Below the pieces are notes generated by a model. It was not told the origin of the DNA and did no database searches. It worked only from the letters and a program-made list of their open reading frames with translations. A stretch of 44,563 nucleotides of DNA from Rubrivivax sp. (GTDB taxonomy: Bacteria; Pseudomonadota; Gammaproteobacteria; Burkholderiales; Burkholderiaceae_C), in assembly GCA_019635285.1 (NCBI GenBank), contig JAHBZS010000040.1:1-44563 (forward strand), in the 5' to 3' direction. The position numbers and the translations under genes are program-made. How positions within the stretch are numbered: position 1 is the first letter of the stretch; each line of letters opens with the position of its first letter. Positions 4,669-38,178 of this stretch are shown in pieces.

Positions 4669-5853
4669 CTAGCGCAGCAGCGGAAAGAAGCGCTCGCGCC
4701 GCAGTTCGACGCGGCGCGAACGGCCATCGCGAAACAGCTGCAACGCCACTTGCTCGCGCCCGGCCAGCGCTTGCCAGGCCTGCGCCGGGCTCCAGGCGCG
4801 GGCGTCGCGGCCGTCGATGGCCTGCACTGCCTCGCCGGCCTGCAGCCCGGCCGCAGCCGCCGGGCTGCCGTCGATCACCGCGCCGAGGCGCAGCCAGTCG
4901 CCGCCTTCCAGCCGGAAGCCGAAGCCGCCGGGCAGCGGCGGCGGCTCGGGCAGGCCCGGCAGTTCGACGATCAGCCGGTCGCCCGGGCCGTCCAGCGTCA
5001 CCGCGCCCGGCTCGAACAGCGCCATGCCCAGGCTGCCGGCCAGGCGCTCGAAATGCGGGCCGCGCGCGCTGCCCGTGCCGCTTTCCAGCGCGGCCGGCAC
5101 CTGCCGCGCTACCCAGCCCGGCGACACCAGCCGCTCGATGCGCGCAAAGCGCGCCTGCACGTTGCCGCCCAGCTCGCGCACCGTGGTCTGCGGCAGGTCG
5201 GGCGCCTGGCGCAGCAGCGCGTCGGCCCGCTTGGCGAACACCACCAGCGCACCGGCATTGCCGGTATCGAAGACGAAGTCGTCCGCGGCGCGCGCGCCCA
5301 GGGCCAGCGACAGCACCGGCAGGCCCAGGTCCCAGCGCAGCGGCAGCACGGCGGCGCCCGAAGGCGGCAGCGCGGCCGTGGCCGCCCAGCGCAGCTGCCC
5401 CGCGGCCAAGTCGAAGCGCGTGATGCGCTCGCGCAGCCACGGCGCACCGAGCGCGCCGTCGAAGCGGCCGCCGGCCTGGCCGACCAGCGGTTGCAGGTCG
5501 AGCACGATCGCCGGCATCTCCGCCGCGGCATCGGCGCCTGGCAAGGCGGGCAGCCGCACGCGCGGCAAGGTCTGCACGCCGCCGGCCATGGCCACGCGCA
5601 GCGGCGGCAAGGGCGGCAGCTTCAGCTGCTCGGCCAGCGCCGGCGAGACCAGCGCCGCGCTGGCGCCGCTGTCCACCAGCCAGCGCGTGGCCTGGCCCTG
5701 CAGCGGCAGCTCGATCCACGGCAGGCCGCCGAGGTCGCCGGTGCGCAGCAGCTGCAGCGGCGCGCTGCCGTCTGTGGTCGCGGCCGTGACGCGCGGCGCC
5801 GCGGCGGCCAGCAGCGGCAGCGCCAGCAGCTCGCGGCGGCGCAGCAGCGGCAT
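4669..5853 (-). CDS. exported retropepsin-like aspartic protease with C-terminal PDZ domain
   Basis: This 394-residue protein has two aspartic-protease signatures, LVDSGASAALVS with D61 and FVFDTGNAGALVV with D196, each followed by hydrophobic strand residues as in pepsin/retropepsin folds. Residues from about 320 form a PDZ-like domain (GAVIDGSPAAAAGLQAGEAV, then QAIDGRDARAW). The N-terminus, MPLLRRRELLALPLLAAAAP, resembles a Tat or Sec signal peptide with adjacent arginines, so periplasmic action is likely. Its ATG starts directly next to the stop codon of the TIR gene with no intervening base, so it is almost certainly translated from the same transcript. Having both Asp motifs in one chain suggests a monomeric enzyme. 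The substrate is unknown. Confidence 0.82.
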   Translation of the reverse strand: MPLLRRRELLALPLLAAAAPRVTAATTDGSAPLQLLRTGDLGGLPWIELPLQGQATRWLVDSGASAALVSPALAEQLKLPPLPPLRVAMAGGVQTLPRVRLPALPGADAAAEMPAIVLDLQPLVGQAGGRFDGALGAPWLRERITRFDLAAGQLRWAATAALPPSGAAVLPLRWDLGLPVLSLALGARAADDFVFDTGNAGALVVFAKRADALLRQAPDLPQTTVRELGGNVQARFARIERLVSPGWVARQVPAALESGTGSARGPHFERLAGSLGMALFEPGAVTLDGPGDRLIVELPGLPEPPPLPGGFGFRLEGGDWLRLGAVIDGSPAAAAGLQAGEAVQAIDGRDARAWSPAQAWQALAGREQVALQLFRDGRSRRVELRRERFFPLLR

Positions 5854-6786
5854 CTACGGCTCCAGTTCGCTTTCCAGGTCGCCGATCAGCTCGGCGGTCT
5901 GTGCGCTCATGCGCTCCAGCGCCTGGCGCGCCGCCTCGTTGAGCGCCTCCTTGCGCGCGTCCAGCGCCGCCACCTCCGCGGCCGGCGCGCCGCCCGACGC
6001 GTCCAGATGGTGGATCGCCTCGATGACTTCGTTGAGCTTGAACATCGCGCCGCGGTAGACCTCGTTCTCGATGGCCGCCAGCACCTCGCGCACGTCCTCG
6101 CACAGGCTGCGCCGGTCGCGCCAGGCGGCGGTGATGCGGTCGCGGTGCAGCGCCAGCCGCGGAATGAAGCGCTCGCTGACCTCGTTGTAGGCGGCCAGCG
6201 TGTCGCGCACATGGTCGAAGGCGGCGGGGTTGGTCGACAGCACCGCCAGGCTGTTGCCCATCGACGCCTGCCAGCGGAAAGCCACCTGCTTGTACTCGGT
6301 GACCTCGGCCGACAGCGCGTCGAGCATGGCGCGCCGGTCGGCATTGCGCAGCGACTCGATCATCACGCTGGCGTGCTTGAACAGCTCGTCGCCGATCCGG
6401 CGCGCGGCCTGGGCGATGCCGGCATCGCTGGTGTCGGTGGCATCGATGTAGAGCATCTGCGCCGGGTCGATGCCCAGCTCGGTCATGCGCTCACCCAGCG
6501 GCTGCAGCAGCACCGGCAGCGCGAAGGCGCGCTGCAGGTCGGCCTGGCGCTGCAGCGCCAGCGCCGTCTCGCGCTTCACCCAGTCCGAGGCCAGCGCATG
6601 CTCATCGATGAAGACCAGCACGAAGTCACAGTCGCGGCGGATCGCCGCCTCGATGCGCGGCGCGAAACGCTGCCCGGCGGCCAGCGCGTCGCGGTCCAGC
6701 CAGACCTGCACGTGCGGCGGCAGCGGCTCGGTCAGCCGCAGCACCAGCGGCTTGCTCTCGCTGGCGTGGCTGAGGAAGATCCTCAT
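5854..6786 (-). CDS. TIR-domain protein with helical C-terminal region
   Basis: This is a 310-residue cytoplasmic protein. Residues 1-135 form a bacterial TIR domain: strand A motif MRIFLSHASESK, then VWLDRDALAAGQRF, the DFVLVFIDEHALASDWVKRE segment with the likely NADase glutamate at E73, and a final YIDAT strand. Residues 140-310 look almost entirely alpha-helical, with no transmembrane segment. Bacterial TIR domains commonly cleave NAD+ or make cyclic ADP-ribose signals in antiphage defence, for example ThsB of Thoeris. The gene begins 15 bases after the MmgE/PrpD stop and abuts the protease gene. It is longer than a typical ThsB of about 200 residues. A SIR2-SLOG (ThsA-like) gene lies about 3.1 kb away on the opposite strand. 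Its function is otherwise unknown. Confidence 0.85.
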   Translation of the reverse strand: MRIFLSHASESKPLVLRLTEPLPPHVQVWLDRDALAAGQRFAPRIEAAIRRDCDFVLVFIDEHALASDWVKRETALALQRQADLQRAFALPVLLQPLGERMTELGIDPAQMLYIDATDTSDAGIAQAARRIGDELFKHASVMIESLRNADRRAMLDALSAEVTEYKQVAFRWQASMGNSLAVLSTNPAAFDHVRDTLAAYNEVSERFIPRLALHRDRITAAWRDRRSLCEDVREVLAAIENEVYRGAMFKLNEVIEAIHHLDASGGAPAAEVAALDARKEALNEAARQALERMSAQTAELIGDLESELEP

Positions 6787-6801
6787 CGCCCGCCCCGCGT
6801 T

Positions 6802-8163
6802 TCAGACCACCAGCAGCGCTGCCAGCCGGCGCGCGTCGTCGAGCTGGTCGAGGTTCTGCAGCGCCTCCAGGAACTGCCGCTGCTGCGCCGGCGGCAGCGG
6901 CCGCGGCGCATAGGCCATGCAGTCGTCGAAGCGCGCGCGCTGCTGCGCGTCGCTCAGGTCGTTGCCCGGGAAGCCCGGCGCGATGTCCAGGCCGCGCTCG
7001 AACACGCGGCCGTCCGTGGTGTGCAGCACCACGTCCACCGCGGTGTGGCCGCGGGCGTCCATCGCCGCGACGCCCTCGATGCGTACGCGCGGAATCAGCT
7101 GCTGCACCTGCGGGTCGATGATCTGCTCGGGCCGGAAGTGCGCCAGCGCCGAGCTGCGCCGCACGACGGCATTGGCCACGCAGTACTGGGCACTGAACTG
7201 CGCGTCGACGCGCGGGTTCTCGCCGATGCGCCACGGCTGGCCGACCAGCTTGAACGAATACGGCGGCTGCCTCACCAGCACCGATTGCACCTGCGCGGGC
7301 TGCAGATCCAGCTCGCGCACCGCCTGCAGCACCAGCTCGGTCATGCCCTGCGTGGCGCCGCAGCTGGGGTACTGCTTGAACATCATCTTCAGCAGCCGCC
7401 AGTCCTGGCCCAGCCCGGCGGCCAGCGCCCGGGCATCGAGCCGGCCGCGGCCGTAGAGATGGCCATAGCCGTACAGGCCGGTGACGAACTGCTGCGGGCC
7501 GGTGAAGCCGCGCTGCGCCATCTGCGCGCAGACCACGCCGGTCTCGGCCACCCAGCCCTGCACCGCACGCACCGCCAGCGAGCCGTCGATGTTGCTCTGG
7601 AAGCTGCCGCCGCAGCGGTTGAAGGCCAAGGCCAGCGCATGCAGGGTCTGCCGCGGCGTCAGCTTCAGGATGCGCGCGGCCGCCGCGGTGGGCGCGAAGA
7701 CCACGGCGATGCCGGTGGGGTCGAAGCCGTCGTACTGCGCCTCGCTGAGGTTGAAGCGCGAGCTCAACTCGGCGCCGGCCGCCAGCGCCGCCAGGAACTC
7801 CGCACCACTGCAGCCGCCGGCCAGTTCCGCCGCGGCCAGCGCGGCGGGGATCAGCGACGAGCCGATGTGGATGCCCGGCGCCATGGCGTCGCAATAGTCG
7901 AGCGCGCGGCACATCGTGCCGTTGAGCTGCGCGGCGCTGGCCGCGGGCAAGCGGTCGCCGAAGACGAAGGACGTGGCCTGCTCGGCGCCGCCGCGCTCGC
8001 GCAGCAGCTCGCGCAGCGCGGCGATGCCGTCTTCGCCCGCGCCGGCCAGCGCGGCGCCGGTGGCGGCCATCGTCACCAGGCGCACGATGCGCCGCGCGTC
8101 GGCCGGCACGTCGCGCGCCTGCAGCGTGCAGACGAAGTCGGCCAGCTGCTGCTCGACGCTCAC
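6802..8163 (-). CDS. MmgE/PrpD-family protein (2-methylcitrate dehydratase-like)
   Basis: This 453-residue protein shows the MmgE/PrpD pattern: an N-terminal all-helical domain beginning SVEQQLADFVC, an ALDYCDAMAPGIHIGSSLIPAALAAAE active-site region, and a C-terminal part with MMFKQYPSCGATQGMTE near the middle. Members dehydrate 2-methylcitrate or act on related tricarboxylates such as cis-aconitate; the exact substrate cannot be read here, and no other methylcitrate-cycle gene is nearby. The GTG start at 8163 overlaps the stop of the dehydrogenase gene by four bases (GTGA), a sign of translational coupling. Neighbours upstream (a dehydrogenase and a flavin reductase-like protein) suggest a small catabolic operon. 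Confidence 0.83.
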   Translation of the reverse strand: MSVEQQLADFVCTLQARDVPADARRIVRLVTMAATGAALAGAGEDGIAALRELLRERGGAEQATSFVFGDRLPAASAAQLNGTMCRALDYCDAMAPGIHIGSSLIPAALAAAELAGGCSGAEFLAALAAGAELSSRFNLSEAQYDGFDPTGIAVVFAPTAAAARILKLTPRQTLHALALAFNRCGGSFQSNIDGSLAVRAVQGWVAETGVVCAQMAQRGFTGPQQFVTGLYGYGHLYGRGRLDARALAAGLGQDWRLLKMMFKQYPSCGATQGMTELVLQAVRELDLQPAQVQSVLVRQPPYSFKLVGQPWRIGENPRVDAQFSAQYCVANAVVRRSSALAHFRPEQIIDPQVQQLIPRVRIEGVAAMDARGHTAVDVVLHTTDGRVFERGLDIAPGFPGNDLSDAQQRARFDDCMAYAPRPLPPAQQRQFLEALQNLDQLDDARRLAALLVV

Positions 8164-9086
8164 GACGCGGCTCCGTCCGCGCCGGGCGACACGGCCACGC
8201 CGGCTTGGCGCTCGACCCAGCGCGCCAGCTCGCTGACGCTGGCACCGGGCCCGGCCGCCAGCGCGGCGGCCCGCCAAAGCTGCTGCCCCAGGCCGGACAG
8301 CGGCATCGGCAGCTGCGCCTCGCGCGACAGGTCCAGCGCGATGCCGATGTCCTTGAGCATCAGCTCCAGCTTGAAGGGGTCGTCGAAGCTGCGGCTGAGC
8401 ACGCGCTGCGCGATGTGGTTCCTGGTGATCCACGAGCCGCCGGTGGATTCGTTGAGCACCGCCACCATCGCCGCCGGGTCCAGGCCCACGCGCTTGCCCA
8501 GCGTCAGCCCTTCCATGGTCGCGCTGAAGGTCATCGACGTGATCAGGTTGTTGATGCACTTCATCATGTGCCCGGCGCCAAGCGGCCCGACGTGATGCAC
8601 CGCGCGGCCCATGCGTTCCAGCAGCGGGCGCACACGCTGCAGGTCGGCCGCGCTGCCGCCGACCATGAACACCAGTTCCGCCGCCTCGGCGCCCCACTGC
8701 GCGCCGGACACCGGCGCATCGACCATGGCCACGCCGCGTTCGGCCAGCGCCGCCGCGGTCTGGCGCGTCAGCCACGGCTCGGCGGAGGAGGTGTCGAGCA
8801 GCAGCGCGCCGCGCTTCAGGCCCTGCAGCAGCCCCTGCTCGCCCAAGGCCACCTGCTGCACCACCTGGCCGTTGGGCAGCATGGTGACGACGACGTCGCA
8901 GCCTTCGGCCAGCGCGGCCGGCGTGTCGGCCGCGGTCGCGGCGCCGCCGAGCGTCTGCGCCAGCTGGCGGGCCGTCGCGGCGTTGGCGTCATGCAGCCGC
9001 AGGTGGTGGCCGGCGCGCGCCAGGTGGGTGGCCATCGGCGCGCCCATCACGCCCAGGCCGACAAAGCCGATCTGCAGACTCTGCAT
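8160..9086 (-). CDS. NAD-binding 3-hydroxyisobutyrate dehydrogenase-like enzyme
   Basis: This 308-residue enzyme has the beta-hydroxyacid dehydrogenase fold: nucleotide motif GFVGLGVMGAPMATHLARAG at residues 7-26, substrate loop DAPVSGAQWGAEAAEL near 123-138, and the catalytic lysine K176 in GAGHMMKCINN. It is a paralogue of the glxR product at 165-1064 but has a different substrate loop, and it lies in another operon, so it probably acts on a different beta-hydroxy acid. It starts at ATG 9086, downstream of the flavin reductase-like gene, and overlaps the MmgE/PrpD gene start by four bases. The family assignment is secure; the substrate is unknown. Confidence 0.85.
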   Translation of the reverse strand: MQSLQIGFVGLGVMGAPMATHLARAGHHLRLHDANAATARQLAQTLGGAATAADTPAALAEGCDVVVTMLPNGQVVQQVALGEQGLLQGLKRGALLLDTSSAEPWLTRQTAAALAERGVAMVDAPVSGAQWGAEAAELVFMVGGSAADLQRVRPLLERMGRAVHHVGPLGAGHMMKCINNLITSMTFSATMEGLTLGKRVGLDPAAMVAVLNESTGGSWITRNHIAQRVLSRSFDDPFKLELMLKDIGIALDLSREAQLPMPLSGLGQQLWRAAALAAGPGASVSELARWVERQAGVAVSPGADGAAS

Positions 9087-9100
9087 GTAGGTATCCCCCG

Positions 9101-9763
9101 CTAGCGGTAGACGCCGTCCCAGGGACCGGGGGCCACCTCGGCCCGCAAGCCGTCCTCGCTGGCCAGCGGCCGGTTCATCGTGAACATCGATTCGGGCGAC
9201 AGCACCGAATAGTCCATGTAGCCCAGGCGCGCCAGCGCGCGCATCTCGCCGCTTTGCACCAGGCCGTCGCGGATGAGGGCGTCGTCGATGTACACGCCCA
9301 CCACCGTGCCGACCACCAGCGTGAAGGGTTCGCCGCGCGGCGGCGCCGGCAGCGGCAGCGTCTGCCACAGCTTGCATTCGAAGGCGGCCGGCGACTCGGC
9401 CACGCGCGGCGGTTTGACGAAGCGCGACGCGGCCTTGGTCAGCCCGGCCAGCGCGAACTCATCGACGCTGGCTGCGACCACCGCCGAGCTGAGGTTCATC
9501 TGGTCGCGCAGCGCCCAGGTGGCGATCGAGCAGGTGAACTCGCCGGTGTCGAGAATGTTGCGCAGGCTGTCCTTGGTGCCACCGGAGCTGAACACCAGCA
9601 TCGGCGGCCGGTCGCTGACGGCATTGAAGAAACTGTAGGGCGCCAGGTTGGCCACGCCGTCCCGGCCGACGCTGGACACCCAGCCGATCGGCCGCGGCAC
9701 CACCAGCGCCTTGAAGGGGTCGTGCGGCAGGCCATGGTCGCGTTTGAGGGCGTCGTAGTGCAT
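9101..9763 (-). CDS. flavin reductase-like (DIM6/NTAB) FMN-binding protein
   Basis: This is a 220-residue protein of the FMN-binding split-barrel family. Typical segments are FKALVVPRPIGWVSS near 18-32, GVANLAPYSFFNAVSDRPPM, and CSIATWALRDQMNLSS. Relatives reduce flavin with NAD(P)H or bind FMN as partners of monooxygenases and decarboxylases. It is first in the minus-strand run that continues into the dehydrogenase, MmgE/PrpD, TIR and protease genes; 14 bases separate it from the dehydrogenase. A 126-base gap upstream (9764-9889) divides it from the divergent SIR2-SLOG gene and should hold promoters for both. No clear -35/-10 pair was identified there. Confidence 0.82.
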   Translation of the reverse strand: MHYDALKRDHGLPHDPFKALVVPRPIGWVSSVGRDGVANLAPYSFFNAVSDRPPMLVFSSGGTKDSLRNILDTGEFTCSIATWALRDQMNLSSAVVAASVDEFALAGLTKAASRFVKPPRVAESPAAFECKLWQTLPLPAPPRGEPFTLVVGTVVGVYIDDALIRDGLVQSGEMRALARLGYMDYSVLSPESMFTMNRPLASEDGLRAEVAPGPWDGVYR

Positions 9764-9889
9764 GGCGCGAGCTTAATGCAGCGGACGGGCCTGGCTCGAT
9801 GCAGCCAGCACCCTTGTGACCCGCGGCGCGGGCCGCCCTGGCCTTGCCAGCGCGGCGCGTCCTGCCTAAGCTCTGGCAACGAGGCCGCC

Positions 9890-11326
9890 ATGACCATCCC
9901 CCGCAAGCAACTCGTCAAGCAGTACGTCGCCGCCATCCGCAATGGACACGCGGCACTGTTCGTCGGCGCTGGGCTGTCGCGCGCTGGCGGGTTCGTCGAC
10001 TGGAAGGGCCTGCTGCGCGGCTGCGCCGAGGAGATCGGCCTGGACTTGGACCGCGAGTACGATCTTGTCGCCGTAGCGCAGTACTACCTGAACCTGCACA
10101 CCAACAACCGCGCCGGCCTCAGCCAGGTGCTGCGCGACGAGTTCGACCGCCATGGCGTGTACACCGAGAACCACGAGCTGATCGGACGTCTGCCGGTGCC
10201 GACGGTATGGACGACGAACTTCGACACGTTGCTTGAACAAGGCTACGCCCGCGCCGGACGCAATGTGGACGTCAAGTCCGCCGATGCGCACATCGCCATA
10301 CCGAAGAAGCGGCGCGACGTGGTGCTGTACAAGATGCACGGCGACATCACGCGATTGGACGAGATCGTCATCTGCAAGGCCGACTACGAGCGCTACGCAC
10401 GCGACCATCCGGTGTTCCAGACCACGCTGGAGGCCGAGCTGGTGGCCAAGACCTTCCTCTTCCTGGGCTTCAGCTTCGCCGACCCGAACCTGAACTACAT
10501 GCTCGGCCATCTGCACGCTCTGCTCCAGGGGAACCAGCACGCACATTTTGCGGTGATGCGCCGGGCGCGCCAGAACCTGGCCTTGGGCGAAGAAGGGCGC
10601 AGCGCCTTCGAGTACGAGCGCAATCGCCAGGACTTGCAGATCCGCGAGCTGGCGCGCTACAACATCCAGACGCATCTGATCGACCAGTTCGCCGAAGTCA
10701 CCGACATCCTGCGCGCCGTCGACGAGGCCGCGCATCGCAAGGACGTGTTCGTCTCCGGCAGTGCCGACAAGTACGACACCGATTTCCCGGAGGAGCGCAT
10801 GCGCGACCTGTGCATGCACTTCGGCGAGATGCTGATGGAACAGGACTACAAGCTGATCAGCGGCATCGGCCTGAACATCGGCGATTCGCTGGTCAAGGGC
10901 GCGCTGGTGTCGCTGCATCTCAAAAAGGATGCCGCCTTCGAGGATCACCTGGTGCTGCGGCCCTTCCCGCGCAACCTGCCGCCGAGCATCGACGAGCCCC
11001 GTTTCATGGACGACTACCGCCACCAGATGATCGCCCGCTGCGGCTTCGCAGTCTTCATTTCCGGCACCAGCCGCTCCAGCCTGGTGTCCAAGGGCGTGAT
11101 GGAGGAGTACCGCATTGCCCGCGAGCTGAAGAAGATTCCGATCGCCATCGGCGCGACCGGCTACGCGGCTGAGCGCATCTGGCGCGAGTTGCGTGATCAG
11201 CGCGAGTCGGTCTACGGTGGCGCCGTCCCGGCAGAGCTCTACGACCGCCTGAATGACCGCCACCTGAGCAACGAGCAATTGCTGCAGACGGCATTTCAGA
11301 TCATGGAGCGCGTTGCGGCGATGTAG
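9890..11326 (+). CDS. SIR2-SLOG NADase, ThsA-like (Thoeris effector architecture)
   Basis: This 478-residue protein has two domains. Residues 1-280 are a SIR2 NADase: ALFVGAGLSRAGG at 22-34, WTTNFDTLLEQGY with N110, YKMHGDITR with H150, and FLGFSFADPNLNYML at 191-205. Residues 285-478 are a SLOG nucleotide-sensing domain: VFVSGSADKYD at 287-297, KLISGIGLNIGDSLVKGAL at 321-339, and GFAVFISGTSRSSLVSKGVMEE at 385-406. Domain order, length and spacing of the catalytic Asn and His agree closely with Bacillus ThsA (476 residues, N112 and H152 from memory). In Thoeris, ThsA depletes NAD+ after SLOG binds a cyclic ADP-ribose signal made by a TIR protein. Here no TIR gene adjoins it; a LysR gene follows after 20 bases. 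Its GC content seems somewhat lower than its neighbours. Confidence 0.87.
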   Translation: MTIPRKQLVKQYVAAIRNGHAALFVGAGLSRAGGFVDWKGLLRGCAEEIGLDLDREYDLVAVAQYYLNLHTNNRAGLSQVLRDEFDRHGVYTENHELIGRLPVPTVWTTNFDTLLEQGYARAGRNVDVKSADAHIAIPKKRRDVVLYKMHGDITRLDEIVICKADYERYARDHPVFQTTLEAELVAKTFLFLGFSFADPNLNYMLGHLHALLQGNQHAHFAVMRRARQNLALGEEGRSAFEYERNRQDLQIRELARYNIQTHLIDQFAEVTDILRAVDEAAHRKDVFVSGSADKYDTDFPEERMRDLCMHFGEMLMEQDYKLISGIGLNIGDSLVKGALVSLHLKKDAAFEDHLVLRPFPRNLPPSIDEPRFMDDYRHQMIARCGFAVFISGTSRSSLVSKGVMEEYRIARELKKIPIAIGATGYAAERIWRELRDQRESVYGGAVPAELYDRLNDRHLSNEQLLQTAFQIMERVAAM

Positions 11327-11346
11327 CTGGGCGATACAGTGCAGGC

Positions 11347-12276
11347 ATGGACACCGTCGCCGGGCTGCAGCTCTTCATCCGCGTCGTCGAGACCGGCAGC
11401 TTCAGCAAGGCGTCGGCGGATCTCGGCATCACCCAGCCCACCGCCACCAAGCACGTGGCCGCGCTGGAGGCGCGCCTGGGTGCGCGGCTGTTCCACCGCA
11501 GCACGCGTGGCGTCACGCCCACCGAGGTGGGCGCCGCGTACTACGACAAGTGCAAGGCCATCGCCCGCCAGCTGGAAGACGCCGACAGCCTGGCCGCGCT
11601 GATGCAGTCGCGCGTGCAGGGCACGCTGCGCATCAGCACCTCGGTGGCCTTCGGCCGGCGCGTGATGACGCCGCTGGTGCTGCGCTTCATGCGCCAGCAC
11701 CCGGGCCTGCAGATCGACCTGAGCTTCGAGGACCGCTACGTCAACCTGGTCGAACAGGGCGTGGACCTGGCCATCCGCATGGGCCGGCTGGCCGACTCGT
11801 CGCTGGGCGCGCGCTACCTGGGCGTCAACCCGTGGGTGCTGGTGGCCTCGGCCGACTACCTGCAGCGTCGCGGCACGCCGGCGTCGCCCGAGGACCTGGG
11901 CGCGCACGACGCGCTCATCTACAGCAGCGTGCAGGGCGATGAACGCTGGCAGTTCAGCGGTGCCGACGGCCACAGCCTCAGCGTGCCGGTGAAGGGCCCG
12001 CTGCGCAGCAACAACCTGTCGGCGCTGCTCGCCGCGGTGCGCGGCGGCCTGGGCCTGGCCGCCCTGCCCTGGTACGTGGCGCACGACTCGGTGCGCGACG
12101 GCGTGCTGCAGCCGCTGCTGCGCCAGTGGACGCTGCCGGCGCAGGAGATCCACGCGGTGTTCAGCTCGCCGCGGCTGGTGCCCACCAAGGTCAGCGGTTT
12201 CGTCGACTTCCTGCTGCCGCACTTCGGCGGCGACTGGTGGGCCGGCACCGCCACATCCCAAGCTGCTTCTTCATAA
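11347..12276 (+). CDS. LysR-family transcriptional regulator
   Basis: This 309-residue regulator has an N-terminal winged helix-turn-helix (LQLFIRVVETGSFSKASADL at residues 7-26, QPTATKHVAALEARLGARLF) followed by a periplasmic-binding-protein-like effector domain starting near LRISTSVAFGRRVMTPLVL. The sequence resembles the CrgA/AaeR-like group that often controls neighbouring metabolic genes. It starts 20 bases after the SIR2-SLOG gene and ends 10 bases before the RraA-like gene, which it may control. It would originally have been divergent from the flavin reductase-led operon if the SIR2-SLOG gene was inserted later; that is inference from gene order. Confidence 0.9.
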   Translation: MDTVAGLQLFIRVVETGSFSKASADLGITQPTATKHVAALEARLGARLFHRSTRGVTPTEVGAAYYDKCKAIARQLEDADSLAALMQSRVQGTLRISTSVAFGRRVMTPLVLRFMRQHPGLQIDLSFEDRYVNLVEQGVDLAIRMGRLADSSLGARYLGVNPWVLVASADYLQRRGTPASPEDLGAHDALIYSSVQGDERWQFSGADGHSLSVPVKGPLRSNNLSALLAAVRGGLGLAALPWYVAHDSVRDGVLQPLLRQWTLPAQEIHAVFSSPRLVPTKVSGFVDFLLPHFGGDWWAGTATSQAASS

Positions 12277-12986: not shown

Positions 12987-15455
12987 GTGAGCCTCTGGTC
13001 AGGCAATCTCTGTTCTGTGGAGAAGCACAATGAGCCCAAGCAGACTCCGCCAGCCACGGGAGTGGCCCAGGCGTCGGACATCGGTGCTGGCGATTGGGCG
13101 CATGCGTCGCAGGGCGGCAGTCCGCACAGCGGAGGGCATGCGCTGAACGACCACCTTCGGTCGGTGGGCCGACTGGCGGAATCGCTGGCGCCTCAAGGAC
13201 TTCGGGAACTGGCCCGTCTGTCCGGCCTGTGGCACGACCTCGGCAAGCGACGCCATGGTTTTCAGCGCTACATCCGCCAAGCCGGCGGCGCCGACGCGCA
13301 CATCGAAGGCCGAGTGGCCGACCGCGACAAGACGCACTCGGCTGCAGGCGCGCTGTGGGCCGAGCGTTACCTGGCGGACAAGCTCGGCGCGCAGGGCCGT
13401 GTCATCAGCCGCTTGCTGCAATACGTCATCGCCGGCCACCATGCCGGGCTGTCCGACTGGGAGGGTGGCCTCGCCGACCGCCTGGCCGGTGCCGACGCGC
13501 AGGAAGAAGCGACGCAGGCCCTCGCCCGACCGAACCCGGACGACATCCTGCGACCGGAGCTCGGTGCGCTGGACGCACGCTCGCTGCTGACTCTGCTGAA
13601 CGAGCGCGCAGACGGCGCGGCACAGCCGGGGCGCGCCGCGCTGCATCTGCGCATGCTGTTCTCGGCGCTCGTAGACGCCGACTTCCTCGACACCGAGGCC
13701 TACTTCCAGCCTGACGCGGCAAGCCGCCGTGCCGCCGCGTTGGCGATCCGCGACCTGCTGCGGGCCTGCGAGGCGCACCTTGAGCGCCTGTCGGAAGGAG
13801 CGCCGGGCGGTGCAGTCAATCGCGTGCGCGCCAACGTGCTGCGCCAGTGCCGCACGAAGGCCGATCTGCCACCCGGTGTCTTCCGCCTCACCGTGCCCAC
13901 CGGCGGCGGCAAGACGTTGTCGAGCCTGGCCTTCGCACTCGCCCACGCAGCCCGCCACGGCAAGCGGCGCGTCGTCTACGCGATCCCCTACACCAGCATC
14001 ATCGAGCAGACGGCCGACGTATTCCGTAGCGTCTTCGCCGCGCTGGGCGACGATGTCGTAGTCGAGCACCACAGCAACACTGAGGCCGACGAAACGCGCG
14101 AGAACCACCGCTCGCGTCTGGCCTGCGAGAACTGGGACGCGCCGCTGATCGTCACCACCAACGTCCAGCTGTTCGAGAGCCTGTTCGCGCGCCGCACCTC
14201 GCGCTGCCGCAAGCTGCACAGCCTGGTCGACAGCGTCATCGTGCTCGACGAGGCGCAGCTGCTGCCGCTGGAGTTCCTGCAGCCGGTCGTCGACGTGCTG
14301 CGCTACCTGGTGCAGGACTTCGGCGTCACGGTGCTGCTGTGCACGGCCACGCAACCGGTGCTCGATGCGACGGCAAGCTTCGACCCCCAGCGCGGCCTGC
14401 AGCGCGGCATCGGCCCGGTGACCGAGATCATCGACGACGTGCCGGCGCTGTATGCGGCGCTCGAACGCGTGCAGGTGCGGCTGCCGCCGAATCTGAACCA
14501 GCCGCGCCCCTGGCCGGACCTGGCCGACGAGATCGCCGGACACGATGCGGTGCTCGCCATCGTCAGCCGTCGCGCCGACGCGGCCGAGCTGTTCGGCCTC
14601 GTCAAGGCGCGCAGCGACGTGCGCGGCGGATGCTGGCATCTGTCGGCGCTGATGTGCCCGCAGCACCGCAGCGACACGATCGGCCGGATCAAGGCCGCAC
14701 TGGCAGACCGGCGCGAGGCGCTGGCCGCGGGTCGAGAAGCCCAACCGGTACGCGTGATCTCGACCCAACTCGTCGAGGCCGGCGTCGACCTGGACTTCCC
14801 TGTCGTCTATCGCGCGCTGGCCGGGCTCGACTCGGTCGCCCAGGCGGCCGGCCGCTGTAACCGCGAGGGCCGGCTGGCCGAACCCGGGCAGGTGCATGTT
14901 TTCGTGCCGCCGACGAAGGCCCCACCCGGCCTGCTGACGCTGGCGCGCGACACCTGCAAGGCCGTGTGGCACGACCTGCCCGCTCAGCCCTTCGCGCTGC
15001 CGCTGGTCGAGCAGTACTTCAGGCGCCTGCTGCACGACGCCAAGTCGACCGACGCCAAGGGCATCTGCGAGATGCTCTCGCTGCGTGCGGACGTGCGCAC
15101 GCTGACGCTGCCGCTACAGCTGCGTGCGGCGGCCGACGCCTTCCACCTGATCGACGAAGACGGCGCCAGCGTGCTCGTGCGCTACCGCAGCTCCAAGGCG
15201 CGCGAGGACATCGACGCGCTGATCGGCATGCTTGAACGCGACGGGCCCTCGCGCTGGCTGATGCGCAAGCTGCAGCGATACGGGGTCACGCTCTATCGGC
15301 AACGGATTGCGCAGCTGCTGCGCGACGGCATGATCCAAGAGGTCGCCACTTGCCCGGGGCTGTATGTGCAGCACGATGCCTGCCCCGATCTGTACGACGC
15401 CGACCTCGGCTTGCGGACCGATGCAACGCCTAGCGACTCGGTGCTGGTGGTCTGA
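12987..15455 (+). CDS. cas3: CRISPR-associated nuclease/helicase Cas3, type I-C
   Basis: Up to 822 residues. It nicks and degrades DNA bound by Cascade. The N-terminal HD nuclease domain shows LSGLWHDLGK with H83/D84, THSAAGA with H117, and GHHAGLSDW near 150-158. The superfamily 2 helicase domain has Walker A VPTGGGKT at 303-310, the DEAH-like box LDEAQ ending at 424, LCTATQP at 451-457, and motif VI QAAGRCNREG at 619-628. The start is uncertain because no in-frame ATG exists near the beginning: GTG at 12987 or 13017 are candidates, and neither has a clear ribosome-binding site. It leads the cas operon; cas5c follows after 17 bases. Confidence 0.95.
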   Translation: MSLWSGNLCSVEKHNEPKQTPPATGVAQASDIGAGDWAHASQGGSPHSGGHALNDHLRSVGRLAESLAPQGLRELARLSGLWHDLGKRRHGFQRYIRQAGGADAHIEGRVADRDKTHSAAGALWAERYLADKLGAQGRVISRLLQYVIAGHHAGLSDWEGGLADRLAGADAQEEATQALARPNPDDILRPELGALDARSLLTLLNERADGAAQPGRAALHLRMLFSALVDADFLDTEAYFQPDAASRRAAALAIRDLLRACEAHLERLSEGAPGGAVNRVRANVLRQCRTKADLPPGVFRLTVPTGGGKTLSSLAFALAHAARHGKRRVVYAIPYTSIIEQTADVFRSVFAALGDDVVVEHHSNTEADETRENHRSRLACENWDAPLIVTTNVQLFESLFARRTSRCRKLHSLVDSVIVLDEAQLLPLEFLQPVVDVLRYLVQDFGVTVLLCTATQPVLDATASFDPQRGLQRGIGPVTEIIDDVPALYAALERVQVRLPPNLNQPRPWPDLADEIAGHDAVLAIVSRRADAAELFGLVKARSDVRGGCWHLSALMCPQHRSDTIGRIKAALADRREALAAGREAQPVRVISTQLVEAGVDLDFPVVYRALAGLDSVAQAAGRCNREGRLAEPGQVHVFVPPTKAPPGLLTLARDTCKAVWHDLPAQPFALPLVEQYFRRLLHDAKSTDAKGICEMLSLRADVRTLTLPLQLRAAADAFHLIDEDGASVLVRYRSSKAREDIDALIGMLERDGPSRWLMRKLQRYGVTLYRQRIAQLLRDGMIQEVATCPGLYVQHDACPDLYDADLGLRTDATPSDSVLVV

Positions 15456-15472
15456 ACGGAAAAGAGAGAACG

Positions 15473-16159
15473 ATGAAACCCTTCTGCCTGGAAGTCCGCG
15501 GCGACTACGCCTGCTTCACCCGCCCCGAGATGAAGGTCGAGCGCGTGTCCTACGACCTGATCACGCCGTCGGCCGCACGTGCGGTGTTCGAGGCCATCCT
15601 GTGGAAGCCGGGCATCCGCTGGCGCCTGCGGCGTATCGAAGTGCTGGCGCCGGTGCGCTGGATCAGCGTGCGGCGCAACGAAGTCGGTGCAGTGGCATCG
15701 ACGCGCAACGCGCAGACGGCGATGAGCGACGGCCGCGGATCGCTTGCGCTGTACATCGAGGACGAGCGCCAGCAGCGCGCCGGGCTGTTCCTGCGCGACG
15801 TGGCCTACCGGCTCTACGCCGACCTGCAGATGGTCAGCGACGAGGCGCGCGCCAACCCCGGCAAGTACCTGGCGATGTTCAGCCGCCGCGCGCTGGCCGG
15901 GCAATGCGTGAACCAGCCCTACCTCGGCTGCCGCGAGTTCGCCGCGCGCTTCCGCCTGGTCGAGTTGCAGGAGAGCGGCGACGGCGACTGGCAGCCCGCC
16001 GGCGAGGAACCGGCGGCCTTGGACAGTTGGTCGTCCGACCTTGGCTGGATGCTCTACGACCTGGACTACGGGTCGGCGGGCACGCCGCAACCGAAGTTCT
16101 TCCGTGCCGTCGTCGAGCGCGGCGTGCTCGACCTGAGCAGCGTGGAGGTTCGGCAGTGA
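15473..16159 (+). CDS. cas5c: Cas5c (Cas5d), pre-crRNA-processing Cascade subunit
   Basis: This 228-residue RAMP protein has the type I-C start FCLEVRGDYACFTRPEMKVE, then SYDLITPSAARAVFEAILWKP and the SVRRNEVGA segment. In type I-C systems this subunit replaces Cas6: it cuts the repeat RNA at the 3' base of its hairpin and stays on the 11-nucleotide 5' handle. The array here would give the handle UGGAUUGAAAC, matching that mechanism. A GAGAG-type ribosome-binding site lies upstream. Its TGA overlaps the GTG start of cas8c by three bases. Confidence 0.94.
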   Translation: MKPFCLEVRGDYACFTRPEMKVERVSYDLITPSAARAVFEAILWKPGIRWRLRRIEVLAPVRWISVRRNEVGAVASTRNAQTAMSDGRGSLALYIEDERQQRAGLFLRDVAYRLYADLQMVSDEARANPGKYLAMFSRRALAGQCVNQPYLGCREFAARFRLVELQESGDGDWQPAGEEPAALDSWSSDLGWMLYDLDYGSAGTPQPKFFRAVVERGVLDLSSVEVRQ

Positions 16160-18003
16160 TCCTCCAGGCGCTGAACGACTACTACGAGCGCCGCTGTGCC
16201 GACCCGGACCCGGCGCGGCGCCTGCCGGCTTTCGGCCTCGAGCGCAAGGAGATCGGCTTCGTGCTCGACCTGACGCGGGATGGGAAACTGGTTTCGGTCA
16301 CCGACCTGCGCACCCAGATCGGCAGTCGCAAGATCGGCACAGGTCTGCTGGTGCCCAGCGCGGTCAAGAAGACCTCGGGCGTGGCGGCGAACCTGCTGTG
16401 GGACAACGCCGAATACGTGCTCGGACTGCCCGATCCCAAGAAACTCGACGCGGCGCGCGACAAGGGCAAGGAGGAGGAATACCGCCAACGGCTGTTGGAG
16501 ATGCAGGAGGCCTTTCGTCGCCGCATCCTCGACCTGCCGGACGCCGTGCGCCGCGATGCAGGGATTCATGCGGTGCTGGCCTTCCTGGACACTCGCCCAG
16601 CAGAACAGCTCGACCGCAGCGGTCTGTCCGATGAGATCGCATCCGGCAATGCGCCGCTGACGTTTCGTCTCCACGAAGATGGCGGCGCGCTGGTCAGCCA
16701 GCGGCCCGAGGTCGCGCCGCATGTCGTCGCGGCGGCTGCGGCCGGCGACGAAGACGACGAAGCGCCGGCGGCTGATGCCGCTGGACTGACGACGATGTGC
16801 CTCGTCACCGGTCGGTTGGCGCCCGCGGCCAGGCTGCACAGTGCCATCAAGGGCGTATGGGGCGCACAGACCTCCGGCGCCAACATCGTCTCGTTCAACC
16901 TCGATGCCTTCAACTCGCATGGCAAGACCCAGGGTGCCAACGCACCGGTCAGCCCGCAAGCCAGCTTCGGCTACACGACGGCGCTGAACGCGCTGTTGGC
17001 GCGTGACTCCGCCCAGCGCATGCAGGTCGGCGACGCGTCGACCGTCTTCTGGGCGCAGCGCGCCGATGCGTTCGAGGACGAACTGGCCACCCTGCTCGGC
17101 GCGAACATCGATGACCCGGATGCCCGCACGCAGCAGGTCAAGACCTTGTTCGAGTCGATCCACAGCGGCGCCTTCGGCGGCGCGCGCGGCGACAACCGCT
17201 TCTTCGTACTGGGGCTGGCGCCGAATGCGGCACGGATCGCGCTGCGCTTCTGGCACGCCGCGCCGCTGGTCGACATCGCCGAGCGCGTGCGCCGCTGGTT
17301 CGACGACCTCGCGCTCGTCCGCCCGTCCTTCGAGCGCGACGAACACCCGGCGCTGAGAACGTTGTTGCGCGCCGTGGTCCTGCAGCGCAAGGACGACAAC
17401 ATCCCGCCAGGCCTGTCGGGCGACGTGCTTCGCGCGATCTTCACCGGCGCACCTTATCCGGCGCTGTGGCTGAACCTGGCGGTGCAGCGCTGCCGCGCCG
17501 AGCAGGAGGTCTCCTACCACCGCGCCGCGGTCATCAAAGCCTGCCTGAGCCGACCTGCCCGCCGATCGACTTCAACCGAGGAGGACCCTACGACCATGCT
17601 CGACCCCACCAACCAGCAGGCGTCCTACCGTCTCGGCCGCCTGTTCGCCGTACTGGAGAAGATCCAGGAAGAATCGGCCGGCGGCACCCTGAACAAGACA
17701 ATCCGCGACCGCTACTACGGCGCGGCATCGAGCACGCCGGCTTTGGTAGTGCCGCTGCTGCTGAAGCTAAAGAACCATCACGTCGGCAAGCTCGACGAAC
17801 GCGGCCAGCGCATGCTGTACCGCGCCTTTCAGGACCACAAGCCCGACGACTACATCGGCGAAATCCTCGTCGGCGTCGGCGACATCCCGGCGCACCTGAC
17901 GCTGCCCGAGCAGGGACGCTTCGCGCTCGGCTACTACCACCAGCGCCAGGCGTTCTTCACCAAGCCCGACTCCGCAAACGACAACCCCGAAGGGACCCGC
18001 TGA
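16156..18003 (+). CDS. cas8c: Cas8c large subunit of type I-C Cascade
   Basis: This 615-residue protein (Csd1 family) begins at a GTG overlapping the cas5c stop, with GGAGG 8 bases upstream. The N-terminus [14 protein letters not shown] and the segments [19 protein letters not shown] and [19 protein letters not shown] are typical. It recognises the PAM and target DNA within Cascade. A short basic/acidic linker near residues 470-480 ([15 protein letters not shown]) leads into a C-terminal helical domain, residues 481-615, that also has its own start signal for Cas11c. cas7c follows after two bases. Confidence 0.94.
17596..18003 (+). CDS. cas11c: Cas11c small subunit from an internal start inside cas8c
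   Basis: An in-frame ATG at 17596, codon 481 of cas8c, would give a separate 135-residue protein beginning [20 protein letters not shown] and ending at the cas8c stop. A strong Shine-Dalgarno sequence, GAGGAGG at 17578-17584, lies 11 bases upstream inside the linker-coding region. Type I-C Cascade is known to need a small subunit made by internal translation of the cas8c message; it stabilises the crRNA-target duplex along the Cas7 backbone. The helical sequence with [19 protein letters not shown] fits that family. Internal initiation has not been shown for this sequence. Confidence 0.88.
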
Positions 18004-18005
18004 CC

Positions 18006-18965
18006 ATGAGCCTCGCCCACCGCTACGACTTCGTGCTGCTGTTCGATGTGAAGGACGGCAACCCCAACGGCGACCCCGACGCCGGCAACCTGCCCCGCCT
18101 CGATGCCGAGACCGGCCACGGGCTGATGACCGACGTGGCGCTGAAGCGCAAGGTGCGCAACTTCGTCGCCCTGACCCGGGACCAGACGGAGACCGAACCC
18201 CAGCCCGGCGAGAAGCGCTGCGAGATCTACGTCAGGGAAAAGGCCATCCTGAACCTGCAGCACCAGCGCGCGTACTCGGCACTGAAGCTCGACGCGCCCG
18301 AAGAAGCCGCAGCGTCGGAGGGCGAAGCGGCCGACAAGAAACCCGCCAAAAAGGGCGGCAAGGACAAGCGCAAAGGCAGCGGGAGCGACGTCGACCAGGC
18401 GCGCCAGTGGATGTGCCAGAACTTCTTCGACGTGCGCACCTTCGGCGCGGTGATGTCGACGGGCACCAATGCCGGCCAGGTGCGCGGCCCGGTGCAGATC
18501 ACTTTCGCACGCTCCACCGACCCGATCGTCGCGCTGGAACATTCGATTACCCGCATGGCCGTGGCCACCGAGGCGGAGGCCGAGAAGCAGCAGGGCGACA
18601 ACCGGACCATGGGCCGCAAGCACACGGTGCCCTACGGGCTGTATCGCGCGCACGGCTTCGTCTCGGCCTTCCTCGCCGACCAGACCGGCTTCGGCGACGA
18701 CGACCTCGAACTGCTGTGGCAGGCGCTGGAGCAGATGTTCGAGCACGACCGCTCGGCCGCCCGGGGCCACATGGCGACGCGCGGGTTGTACGTGTTCGAG
18801 CATCAGGACAAGCTGGGCAACGCCCACGCGCACGACCTGTTCGACCGCATCGTCGTGGCGCGCAAGGAAGGGGTAACGACGCCTCGCGACTTCGCCGACT
18901 ACCAAGTGGACGTGAAGCAGGAGGGCCTGCCAAGCCAGGTGACGCTGCAGCGGCGGGTCGGATAG
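18006..18965 (+). CDS. cas7c: Cas7c backbone subunit of type I-C Cascade
   Basis: This 319-residue protein (Csd2 family) begins [20 protein letters not shown] and contains [19 protein letters not shown] and the [14 protein letters not shown] segment. Several copies coat the spacer part of the crRNA. Residues about 99-128 form a low-complexity insertion that is first acidic/alanine-rich and then lysine-rich ([14 protein letters not shown]), perhaps a flexible nucleic-acid-binding loop. The ATG at 18006 lies two bases after the cas8c stop. Its TAG lies 16 bases from the end of the convergent toxin gene, so this is the last gene of the interference half. Confidence 0.94.
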
Positions 18966-18981
18966 GTGCAGGATGGCTGGC

Positions 18982-19275
18982 TCAAAGCCGCCCGCGCCAG
19001 AACCCCGGCCGGCGCCGCTGCGCCGCGACGGCGATGACGCGGGCGGCGTCAGCCTGCACGCGATAGACCAGCGAATACGGAAAGCGATGAATCGGCAGCA
19101 CACGCACGCCTCCCTGGGCGGGTGTGCCGAGCCCAGGCTCGGCGCCGATGCGTGCCAGCGCCTTGCGGAGTTCTTCGTGGAAGGCCCGGGCCGCCCCCCA
19201 GGCTTCATGGTCGATGTACCAGTCGGCCGCCTGCTCCGCGTCGGCCTGAGCCTGCGCGGCGAGTTCGACCCTCAT
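18982..19275 (-). CDS. RelE/ParE-family toxin of a toxin-antitoxin pair
   Basis: This 97-residue protein has the compact RelE/ParE fold pattern: MRVELAAQAQADAEQAADWY, a helix with AFHEELRKALARI, the RVLPIHRFPYSLVYRV strand pair and the basic C-terminal AAQRRRPGFWRGRL. Such toxins either cut mRNA at the ribosome (RelE) or poison gyrase (ParE); the sequence does not decide which. Its ATG overlaps the antitoxin stop as ATGA, showing translational coupling. The gene is antisense to the cas operon, between cas7c and cas4. Confidence 0.88.
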   Translation of the reverse strand: MRVELAAQAQADAEQAADWYIDHEAWGAARAFHEELRKALARIGAEPGLGTPAQGGVRVLPIHRFPYSLVYRVQADAARVIAVAAQRRRPGFWRGRL

Positions 19276-19514
19276 GGGCGCGGCCGGCGACTCTCGATGC
19301 GCGCCGCCAGCGCGGCCAGCGCCTCGTCGGCGGGGACGAAGCGCATGCGGCCGGCATCCATGTCGGCCACGCGGCGAGCGATCTCTGCGTCCCAATCCGG
19401 GTGCAGCGCCGGCGCCGGCAGCACGCTGTCGGCCAGCGCCTCGGCCAGCTCCGCCCGCTCCTGCGGGGACAGCTTCATCGCGTCGGCCAGCACGGCGTCG
19501 AGGGTGGGCGTCAT
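19272..19514 (-). CDS. addiction-module antitoxin (PF09720-like)
   Basis: This 80-residue acidic protein begins MTPTLDAVLADAMKLSPQER and continues ELAEALADSV; the segment HPDWDAEIARRVADMDAG and the EALAALAARI helix are typical of the short unstable antitoxins paired with RelE/ParE-like toxins. The ATG at 19514 is preferred over an upstream one in the same frame because of a CGGAGAA site just upstream and the family length. It is the first gene of the pair and overlaps the toxin start. Its promoter must lie in or beyond the 61-base gap shared with cas4. Confidence 0.86.
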   Translation of the reverse strand: MTPTLDAVLADAMKLSPQERAELAEALADSVLPAPALHPDWDAEIARRVADMDAGRMRFVPADEALAALAARIESRRPRP

Positions 19515-19575
19515 GACAAGAATTCTCCGCAACGGCAAGGCCGCTCCAGTGTAGCGAGGCGACGCCGCGCCCGCC
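19515..19575. promoter_or_regulatory. divergent gap between antitoxin and cas4 with small palindromes
   Basis: This 61-base stretch separates the antitoxin start (minus) from the cas4 start (plus). It must hold, or overlap, control signals for both. AGAATTCT at 19519-19526 is a perfect palindrome, and GTCATGAC at 19510-19517 is another, covering the antitoxin start codon. A weak -10-like TACACT is readable on the minus strand. No convincing sigma-70 promoter or ribosome-binding site for cas4 was seen. Toxin-antitoxin complexes usually repress their own promoter, so binding here could also affect cas4-cas1-cas2; this is inference. Confidence 0.4.
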
Positions 19576-20208
19576 ATGGACGACATCGACCCGCTGCCGC
19601 TGTCGGCACTCCAGCACTGGGCCTACTGCCCCCGCCAATGCGGGCTGATCCACCTCGAACAGGCCTTCGACGACAACCTGTACACACAACGCGGCCAGGC
19701 CGTGCACGCGCAGGTGGACCAGCCAGGCGTAGAGCTGCGCCAGGGCCTGCGCGTCGAGCGCGCGCTGCCCGTGTGGCACGACGCGCTCGGGCTGATCGGT
19801 AAAGCCGATGTCGTCGAGTTCGAGCACGACGGCACGCCCTACCCGGTGGAATACAAGCACGGCTCGCGCCACAAGGCCGCCGACATCGCCGCCTGCGACG
19901 ACGTGCAGCTGGCGGCGCAGGCGATGTGCCTGGAAGCGATGACCGGCCGCGCCGTGAGCGAAGGCGCGCTGTACTACGCCAGTTCCAAGCGCCGACGCGT
20001 CGTACCGATCACCGTCGCGCTGCGCCAATGCGTGGCCGAGTCTGCCGCCGAGGTGCGCGCCATGCTCGCCGCAGGCCGCCTGCCCGACGTCACCCACGAC
20101 ACGCGCCGCTGCAAGGCCTGTTCGCTGCGCGACCGCTGCCAGCCGGCGGCAATGGCGGCGCTGCACGACCCGCAAGTCGCCGACCACCTCTTCGACCCCG
20201 ACGCCTGA
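19576..20208 (+). CDS. cas4: Cas4 nuclease of the adaptation module
   Basis: This 210-residue RecB-like nuclease has LPLSALQHWAYCPRQCGLIH with C18/C22, RGQAVH with H44, GKAD with D78, VEYKHG with E92/K94 and the helix QLAAQAMCLE with Q111. A C-terminal cluster CKACSLRDRC (C179, C182, C188) completes the iron-sulfur site with an N-terminal cysteine. Cas4 trims prespacers and selects those with the right PAM together with Cas1-Cas2. It begins right after the divergent antitoxin region and is 9 bases from cas1. The lack of an evident ribosome-binding site is noted. Confidence 0.94.
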   Translation: MDDIDPLPLSALQHWAYCPRQCGLIHLEQAFDDNLYTQRGQAVHAQVDQPGVELRQGLRVERALPVWHDALGLIGKADVVEFEHDGTPYPVEYKHGSRHKAADIAACDDVQLAAQAMCLEAMTGRAVSEGALYYASSKRRRVVPITVALRQCVAESAAEVRAMLAAGRLPDVTHDTRRCKACSLRDRCQPAAMAALHDPQVADHLFDPDA

Positions 20209-20217
20209 ATTCGCGCC

Positions 20218-21246: not shown

Positions 21247-21251
21247 CGGCC

Positions 21252-21542
21252 ATGCTGGTCATCGTCTGCTACGACGTGAACACCGAGACGAAGGCCGGCC
21301 GGCGTCGATTGCGTCGGGTCGCCAAGGTGTGCGAAGGCATCGGGCAACGCGTGCAGAAGTCGGTGTTCGAATGCCAGATCGACCTGATGCAGATGGAAGC
21401 GCTGGAACGCCGCCTGCTCGGCGAGATCGACAAGGAGCACGATTGCCTGAGGCTCTACCGGCTCTCCGACGCCAAGGGCTGCGAGGTGCGCGAGCACGGC
21501 AAGTTCAGGGCCACGGACTACGAGGCTCCGCTGGTTCTGTGA
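21252..21542 (+). CDS. cas2: Cas2 adaptation subunit
   Basis: This 96-residue ferredoxin-fold protein begins [20 protein letters not shown] with the conserved strand-1 aspartate at D8, then [20 protein letters not shown] and a C-terminal [10 protein letters not shown] strand. It forms the central dimer of the Cas1-Cas2 integrase. It is the last cas gene; the leader begins directly after its stop and the first repeat lies 183 bases downstream. Confidence 0.95.

Positions 21543-36581: not shown

Positions 36582-38178
<1,597 letters not shown>

What the first reader, a model, noticed from the sequence alone, without database searches (positions are those of the whole stretch)
5854..11326. Split Thoeris-like pair: ThsA-type SIR2-SLOG gene and a TIR gene 3.1 kb apart in opposite operons
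The SIR2-SLOG protein (9890-11326) matches ThsA in length, domain order and placing of catalytic N110 and H150, yet no TIR gene adjoins it. The only TIR gene in view (5854-6786) is on the other strand, at the end of a metabolic operon, and carries an extra helical region of about 170 residues. Known type I Thoeris loci keep thsA and thsB together. Either this is a Thoeris system broken up by rearrangement, or the SIR2-SLOG protein is triggered by something else. Next to an active-looking CRISPR locus it suggests a defence cluster.
Basis: partly seen in the sequence, partly recalled or inferred. Interest (0 to 1): 0.8.

Follow-up and report, generated by a model that had tools for sequence, protein, structure and literature searches.

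The report
Lone ThsA gene without its partner
A bacterial suicide-enzyme gene of the Thoeris antiphage kind has been inserted on its own, without the partner gene that normally switches it on, and its signal-sensing pocket has changed at positions that do not vary in the relatives compared, so it may answer to a different alarm.

Summary
Both genes are real and correctly placed: a full-length ThsA-family protein (SIR2 + STALD/SLOG, catalytic N110/H150 intact) and a TIR protein with a long helical tail. They are not a broken-up pair. In two same-genus genomes the flavin-reductase|LysR junction is empty (33 and 39 bp); in the window a 1,555-bp insertion carrying only thsA sits there. The TIR gene is older: it has full-length orthologues in 5 of 197 relatives, none with ThsA, and is coupled to an aspartyl-protease-PDZ gene. 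In 86 of 91 other ThsA loci examined a TIR gene lies nearby; the window's ThsA has none beside it, and its genome holds no clear canonical ThsB. Its closest relative (L078, Acidobacteria MAG, 57%) also stands alone. These two share changes at two SLOG positions invariant in 88 of 88 other ThsAs (BcThsA G327 and N387), beside signal-binding K388, which is Ser in both. The third clade member, L079, keeps both residues and a ThsB. Against over-reading: this is one evolutionary event, and other TIR-less ThsAs keep the pocket. Best reading: a rare ThsA lineage uncoupled from a dedicated ThsB, with an altered sensor. Function is untested.

The parts
9890..11326 (+). thsA-family gene, 478 aa: SIR2 NADase domain plus C-terminal STALD/SLOG sensor domain; no adjoining TIR gene
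   Evidence: N110/H150 = BcThsA N112/H152
9776..11330 (+). 1,555-bp single-gene insertion between flavin reductase and LysR genes
   Evidence: blastn against G022 (L062) and G063 (L063): left homology ends at 9775, right homology resumes at 11331/11332; start-to-start gap 33 and 39 bp in the two relatives
10874..10876 (+). codon 329 of the SIR2-SLOG protein (Asn): Gly in 88 of 88 other ThsA rows (BcThsA G327), Lys in L078
   Evidence: BcThsA number counted on the alignment printed
11066..11071 (+). codons 393-394 (Thr-Ser): BcThsA N387 (88 of 88 others) and K388 (79 K, 6 R, 1 T, 1 H, 1 N of 88)
   Evidence: K388 role from passages of PMC10022894
5854..6786 (-). TIR gene, 310 aa: TIR_2 domain (3-125) with W69xxxE73 plus about 180-residue helical region; not the partner of thsA
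4669..5853 (-). aspartyl-protease-PDZ gene coupled to the TIR gene
6802..9086 (-). MmgE/PrpD-family gene (6802-8157) and 3-hydroxyisobutyrate-dehydrogenase-like gene (8160-9086)
9101..9763 (-). flavin reductase-like gene, left border of the insertion
11347..12276 (+). LysR-type regulator, right border of the insertion

Best explanation
The gene is an intact ThsA-type SIR2-SLOG effector that entered this genome alone, by a 1,555-bp insertion into a short divergent intergenic region, and belongs to a rare ThsA lineage uncoupled from a dedicated ThsB. Most likely it still works as a Thoeris effector at the output end: on activation the SIR2 domain hydrolyses NAD+ and the infected cell dies or stalls (inferred from family and conserved residues). 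At the input end it is most likely not fired by the TIR protein 3.1 kb away, but by another cue read by the altered SLOG domain: a nucleotide-type ligand other than the canonical glyco-cyclic ADPR, or a phage or host factor directly (inferred; not shown). Shown here: single-gene insertion, no adjoining TIR gene, intact catalytic residues, and pocket changes shared with another lone ThsA. Inferred: enzymatic activity, defence role, identity of the trigger.
For: Full-length ThsA match and ThsA fold (pLDDT 88, best hits BcThsA, EcThsA, SeThsA). N112/H152 equivalents kept in all 90 rows; F357, R371 and E403 equivalents kept too. Empty sites in G022 and G063 and lower GC/GC3 of thsA (0.637/0.881; neighbours flavin reductase 0.695/0.932, LysR 0.714/0.945). 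86 of 91 other ThsA loci have a TIR gene nearby, but the closest relative L078 has none in its 13.4-kb locus and no PF08937 match in its genome. The window and L078 are a 100/99 clade, with L079 100/100. They share no flanking gene family. Both have lost G327 and N387 equivalents (88 of 88 others keep them) and carry Ser for K388, although they differ at 43% of residues and both keep an open frame and the catalytic residues, which argues for continued selection after the pocket changed (inference). K388, R371 and E403 are reported to coordinate 3'cADPR, and K388A/K388E raised ThsB-independent NADase activity in planta (passages of PMC10022894).
Against: The pocket change and lack of TIR fall on one branch, so they are one event, not repeated correlation. 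Other ThsAs without a visible TIR (L146, L149; L090 and L153 at contig ends) keep G327 and N387, and TIR-lessness is not clustered on the tree (5 changes for 6 rows; 53 of 500 shuffles as low). The whole three-member clade is divergent, including Y111F next to the catalytic Asn and a shortened loop, and L079 with these features still has a ThsB; L168 and L129 show as many or more SLOG departures. Five other TIR genes in the genome could act in trans. No activity was measured; no promoter-like site was found upstream (a weak test).
Confidence: 0.4

Rival explanations
1. ThsA in trans: the inserted ThsA is fired by a cyclic-ADPR signal made by one of the genome's other TIR proteins (for example the 213-aa TIR on contig 23 or the 178-aa TIR on contig 72), so the system is a scattered Thoeris.
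For: Six TIR_2 matches in the genome; the 213-aa protein also just passes the ThsB_TIR cut-off (21.4 against 21.2 bits). F357, R371 and E403 equivalents of the SLOG pocket are intact. L119 and L125 show that the TIR may lie 2.1 kb away.
Against: The contig-72 TIR has a 60% relative in G022, which has no ThsA; a marginal ThsB_TIR match like that of contig 23 also occurs in G024 outside its Thoeris locus, so neither looks acquired with thsA. N387 and K388 equivalents are changed.
Confidence: 0.25
2. Relic: thsA lost its ThsB before or during transfer and is a non-functional passenger drifting in the genome.
For: No partner, no promoter-like match upstream, changed pocket residues; a clearly truncated ThsA fragment exists in another same-genus genome (G040).
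Against: Intact 478-codon frame and catalytic residues; the same pocket changes persist in L078 at 57% identity with an intact frame too, which drift would not be expected to allow.
Confidence: 0.2
3. Split Thoeris: the TIR protein at 5854-6786 is the ThsB of this ThsA, separated by rearrangement.
For: Proximity (3.1 kb) and a conserved W69xxxE73 in the TIR domain of six orthologues, so it may be an NADase.
Against: Orthologues in 5 of 197 relatives, none with ThsA; empty site in two of them; coupled to a protease gene in 5 of 5 genomes where the junction is on the contig; absent from the genomes of G024, G040, L078 and L079 (the same query rang in its own genome); no ThsB family match.
Confidence: 0.05

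Closest known systems
Type I Thoeris effector ThsA (BcThsA 6lhx/8bto, EcThsA 8wc0, SeThsA 7uxt)
   Same: Length, SIR2 + SLOG order, fold, catalytic Asn/His, F357/R371/E403 equivalents
   Different: No adjoining thsB; G327->N, N387->T, K388->S; shortened beta11-alpha16 loop, the last shared with L079
L078 (Acidobacteria MAG) and L079 (Armatimonadota MAG) ThsA proteins
   Same: 57% and 51% identity, one supported clade; L078 shares the pocket changes and has no TIR gene in its locus
   Different: L079 keeps G327 and N387 equivalents and has a ThsB_TIR gene 250 bp downstream (E 2.2e-18)
SIR2 effectors triggered without a TIR, such as DSR2 (fired by a phage tail tube protein; abstract of PMC11263360 seen in a listing)
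   Same: SIR2 NADase domain (matches); a precedent for direct triggering
   Different: No SLOG domain in that role; the match covers the SIR2 part only
TIR + aspartyl-protease-PDZ pair (window 4669-6786), no named system found
   Same: Bacterial TIR domain protein
   Different: No match to a ThsB, Thoeris or other named model above its cut-off

Membership tests
ThsA protein family (SIR2-STALD) | SIR2 domain followed by STALD/SLOG domain over the full length | tested here: met
ThsA protein family (SIR2-STALD) | Catalytic Asn112 and His152 | tested here: met
   alignment; 90 of 90 rows
ThsA protein family (SIR2-STALD) | STALD ligand-pocket residues S288, F357, R371, E403 named in PMC7272460 section 7 | tested here: met
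   S288 itself is not invariant in the family (66 S of 88)
ThsA protein family (SIR2-STALD) | K388, reported to coordinate 3'cADPR (PMC10022894), and its invariant neighbour N387 | tested here: not met
   Ser and Thr here; N387 in 88 of 88 others, K388 in 79 of 88
Type I Thoeris system | thsA with one or more adjoining thsB (TIR) genes | tested here: not met
   Nearest TIR gene is 3.1 kb away, opposite strand, of another family, and older than the thsA insertion
Type I Thoeris system | A canonical ThsB anywhere in the genome | tested here: inconclusive
   Only one marginal PF08937 match; assembly 94.5% complete
Type I Thoeris system | Effector activated by a TIR-made cyclic ADPR isomer, NAD+ depletion, phage protection | not testable with these tools
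   Needs biochemistry
ThsB | The TIR gene 5854-6786 matches a ThsB model | tested here: not met
   TIR_2 only; Thoeris type III ThcB4 model 25.3 bits against a cut-off of 220; no ThsB in PADLOC

The most novel reading that the evidence does not exclude
There is a lineage of ThsA that works as a single-gene antiphage effector: it has dropped its TIR signal maker and its SLOG domain has been retuned to sense another ligand, or a phage factor directly.
Probability: 0.33. Interest if true: 0.72.

Novelty: new variant of a known kind. Interest (0 to 1): 0.5.

Why it matters
PMC10022894 (passage) leaves open whether SLOG domains of distant ThsA proteins answer to 3'cADPR or to other signals, and suggests that conservation of SLOG residues may give clues. 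Here two lone ThsAs have lost two residues that 88 of 88 other ThsAs keep, next to a residue known to bind the signal, while their sister with a ThsB keeps both. That makes the question directly testable with one purified protein. It also warns that a TIR gene near a thsA need not be its ThsB.

Tried and rejected
Split pair: rejected on synteny, phyletic pattern and TIR family. The absence of co-occurrence was not used as a statistic: with 5 TIR genomes and 2 ThsA genomes (one only a fragment) among 197, chance overlap is near zero.

More members of the lone lineage were sought and not found: 396 Acidobacteriota genomes including L078's own (two other full-length ThsAs, 37% and 35% to L078's), 399 genomes of the order including the window's own (two others, 37% and 38%), 369 of the class including its own, by STALD, viral contigs (none), plasmids (all 320 records under 60% identity, best of the 40 listed 38.4%), phages (2 records, best 29.8%). 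In one search, 392 relatives were confirmed but only the best 80 were kept. Metagenome contigs were not searched.

The 178-aa TIR on contig 72 was tested as a co-acquired partner; a 60% relative in ThsA-less G022 speaks against it. The TIR protein was folded alone: poor model, used only as a hint of helices. A search for print on TIR + aspartyl protease + PDZ found 0 papers. Searches for orphan, standalone, solitary or incomplete ThsA listed no paper whose title or abstract start describes a lone ThsA; only six papers were opened.

Of these, PMC7272460 was seen as section 7 and passages; PMC10022894, PMC12578639 and PMC8565338 as passages (PMC8565338 says that a search for orphan genes of the Doron systems proved unproductive); PMC11204291 gave no occurrence of my terms; PMC11263360 only as a listing. 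That makes five opened and one seen in a listing. Rows dropped: L144 (no SLOG letters in its open frame), L115 (identical to L116), L076 (same locus as L148).

Full report
Observation. The 478-aa protein is a ThsA by every sequence test: STALD 1.9e-48 and SIR2_2 4.8e-30, PADLOC ThsA 4.4e-156, PDB ThsA 6lhx E 6.6e-103 over residues 8-473, and a model (pLDDT 88, 28 sequences) whose best PDB matches are BcThsA, EcThsA and SeThsA (TM-score by query length 0.78-0.88 for their near-complete chains in ranks 1-8). N110 and H150 fall on BcThsA N112 and H152, whose loss abolishes NAD+ cleavage (PMC7272460, passages). The TIR protein matches TIR_2 only (5.4e-18, residues 3-125), with no ThsB model.

The two genes have separate histories. 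Gene maps of same-genus contigs show that G022 keeps the TIR gene (80%), the MmgE/PrpD and dehydrogenase genes, flavin reductase and LysR; G063 keeps the TIR gene (77%), flavin reductase, LysR and RraA, with other genes between TIR and flavin reductase. In both, flavin reductase and LysR start 33 and 39 bp apart. In the window 1,583 bp lie between the two starts, and homology to the relatives stops at 9775 and resumes at 11331 (11332 for G063), which leaves a 1,555-bp segment that holds thsA and 114 bp upstream of it. The thsA gene has lower GC and GC3 than both neighbours. Of 30 LysR loci read besides L062 and L063, only the window's own and G022's (the same site as L062) show the window's neighbours within their short flanks, so the empty-site evidence rests on two genomes.

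The TIR gene does not need ThsA. Full-length orthologues (49-80%) occur in 5 of 197 relatives (G022, G063, G010, G067, G037); none of these has any ThsA or SIR2 match. Conversely the search found one full-length ThsA (G024, 37%) and one fragment (G040, residues 7-137); G024's ThsA has two TIR genes beside it. The TIR query did not ring in G024, G040 or the genomes of L078 and L079 (its positive control is its own genome). In 5 of 5 genomes where the junction is on the contig (own, G022, G063, G067, G037) the TIR gene abuts an aspartyl-protease-PDZ gene, with a gap of at most 3 bp or an overlap of at most 4 bp. W69 and E73 of the TIR domain are invariant in six orthologues; that this is the NADase motif is recalled.

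Is a partner elsewhere? The genome has six TIR_2 matches: the window's, a 213-aa TIR, a TIR-nSTAND1-WD40 protein, a TIR protein of 323 aa, a 178-aa TIR and a TIR-ankyrin protein. Only the 213-aa one touches the ThsB_TIR family, at the cut-off (21.4 against 21.2 bits). The 178-aa TIR has a 60% relative in ThsA-less G022. The assembly is 94.5% complete in 89 contigs, so a missed thsB is possible.

How unusual is a lone ThsA? One scan of genome contigs gave 80 loci (best of 392). With profiles built from known ThsBs, 73 of 80 have a TIR ORF within 709 bp of the ThsA frame, two more (L119, L125) have one 2.1 kb upstream in the same gene run, and five have none: L078, L146 and L149 with full flanks, L090 and L153 with a contig end nearby. 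Eleven further loci all have adjacent TIR genes: G024, G219, five plasmids, two Acidobacteriota and two of the same order. In all, 86 of 91.

The lineage. The window's ThsA groups with L078 (100/99) and then L079 (100/100) on a long branch; all other hits are at or below 41% identity. L078 lies between a PadR gene and a Sortilin/Vps10-type gene, with no TIR gene in 13.4 kb and no ThsB_TIR match in its genome, though two TIR_2 frames sit on another contig. The window and L078 share no flanking family. L079 has a ThsB_TIR gene (2.2e-18) 250 bp downstream.

The sensor. In 90 aligned ThsAs, the positions of BcThsA F357, R371 and E403 are kept in all rows. G327, in the glycine-rich turn, and N387 are kept in 88 of 88 rows other than the window and L078, L079 included; the window has Asn and Thr, L078 Lys and Thr. 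K388 is K in 79, R in 6, and T, H, N once each of 88; it is Ser in both. According to passages of PMC10022894, R371, K388 and E403 coordinate 3'cADPR, and K388A, K388E, E403A and R371A raised NADase activity without ThsB in planta. The roles of G327 and N387 are not given in what I read. The loop after the N387 strand is short in all three clade members, L079 included, so it does not go with the loss of TIR. Among columns conserved at 90% or more, the window departs at 5 of 29 SLOG and 7 of 66 SIR2 columns; columns changed in both lone proteins but not in L079 number 3 in the C-terminal part (270, 329, 393) and 0 in the SIR2 part. Column 270 lies before the published SLOG border. Against a clean story: the clade also has Y111F beside the catalytic Asn where all other rows have Tyr, L168 and L129 show more SLOG departures (5 each against 4 for the window in the leave-one-out count), lone ThsAs L146 and L149 keep the pocket, and lack of TIR is not clustered on the tree overall (53 of 500 shuffles as low).

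Reading. I take this as a ThsA effector that moves and is kept without a ThsB, with output chemistry intact and input altered. Persistence of the same pocket changes at 57% identity with intact catalytic residues speaks against a relic (inference). The trigger is unknown; trans-activation by another TIR remains a serious rival. As a protein it belongs to the ThsA family; as a locus it fails the defining feature of a Thoeris system, an adjoining thsB.

Noticed in passing
window 4669-6786 (-); L062, L063, L065, L066: A TIR-helical gene is coupled to an aspartyl-protease-PDZ gene whose N-terminus looks like a signal peptide (by eye) in own genome and four relatives; no named system found.
   Followed up: partly
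window 12987-25480: Type I-C CRISPR-Cas locus with a long array (51 copies in repeat family D2). In G063 RraA is followed after 17 bp by a homologue of window 30376-31026, so this 17-kb block looks like a separate insertion.
   Followed up: partly
window 18973-19554 (+): 193-aa ORF between cas7 and cas4 with no PADLOC match; a rival short ORF on the other strand scores better in my gene caller, so it may not be a gene.
   Followed up: no
window 36511-36563 and 36594-36646: Perfect 53-bp direct repeat, 83 bp start to start.
   Followed up: no
L061 7848-8693 (G040): Truncated ThsA fragment (residues 7-136 only) near a Wadjet JetD gene in a same-genus genome.
   Followed up: no
L119 616-6068 and L125 580-6062: Run of a long TIR gene, a 690-aa gene and thsA in Lachnospiraceae MAGs: a possible different Thoeris layout.
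   Followed up: no
L083 and L086: Nearest TIR gene beside thsA is on the opposite strand in two Planctomycetota MAGs.
   Followed up: no
L146 and L149: Two further ThsA genes without a TIR gene in complete flanks, but with the usual sensor residues.
   Followed up: partly
L056 3578-7675 and L059 7348-9195 (own genome): TIR-nSTAND1-WD40 and TIR-ankyrin proteins elsewhere in the genome.
   Followed up: no
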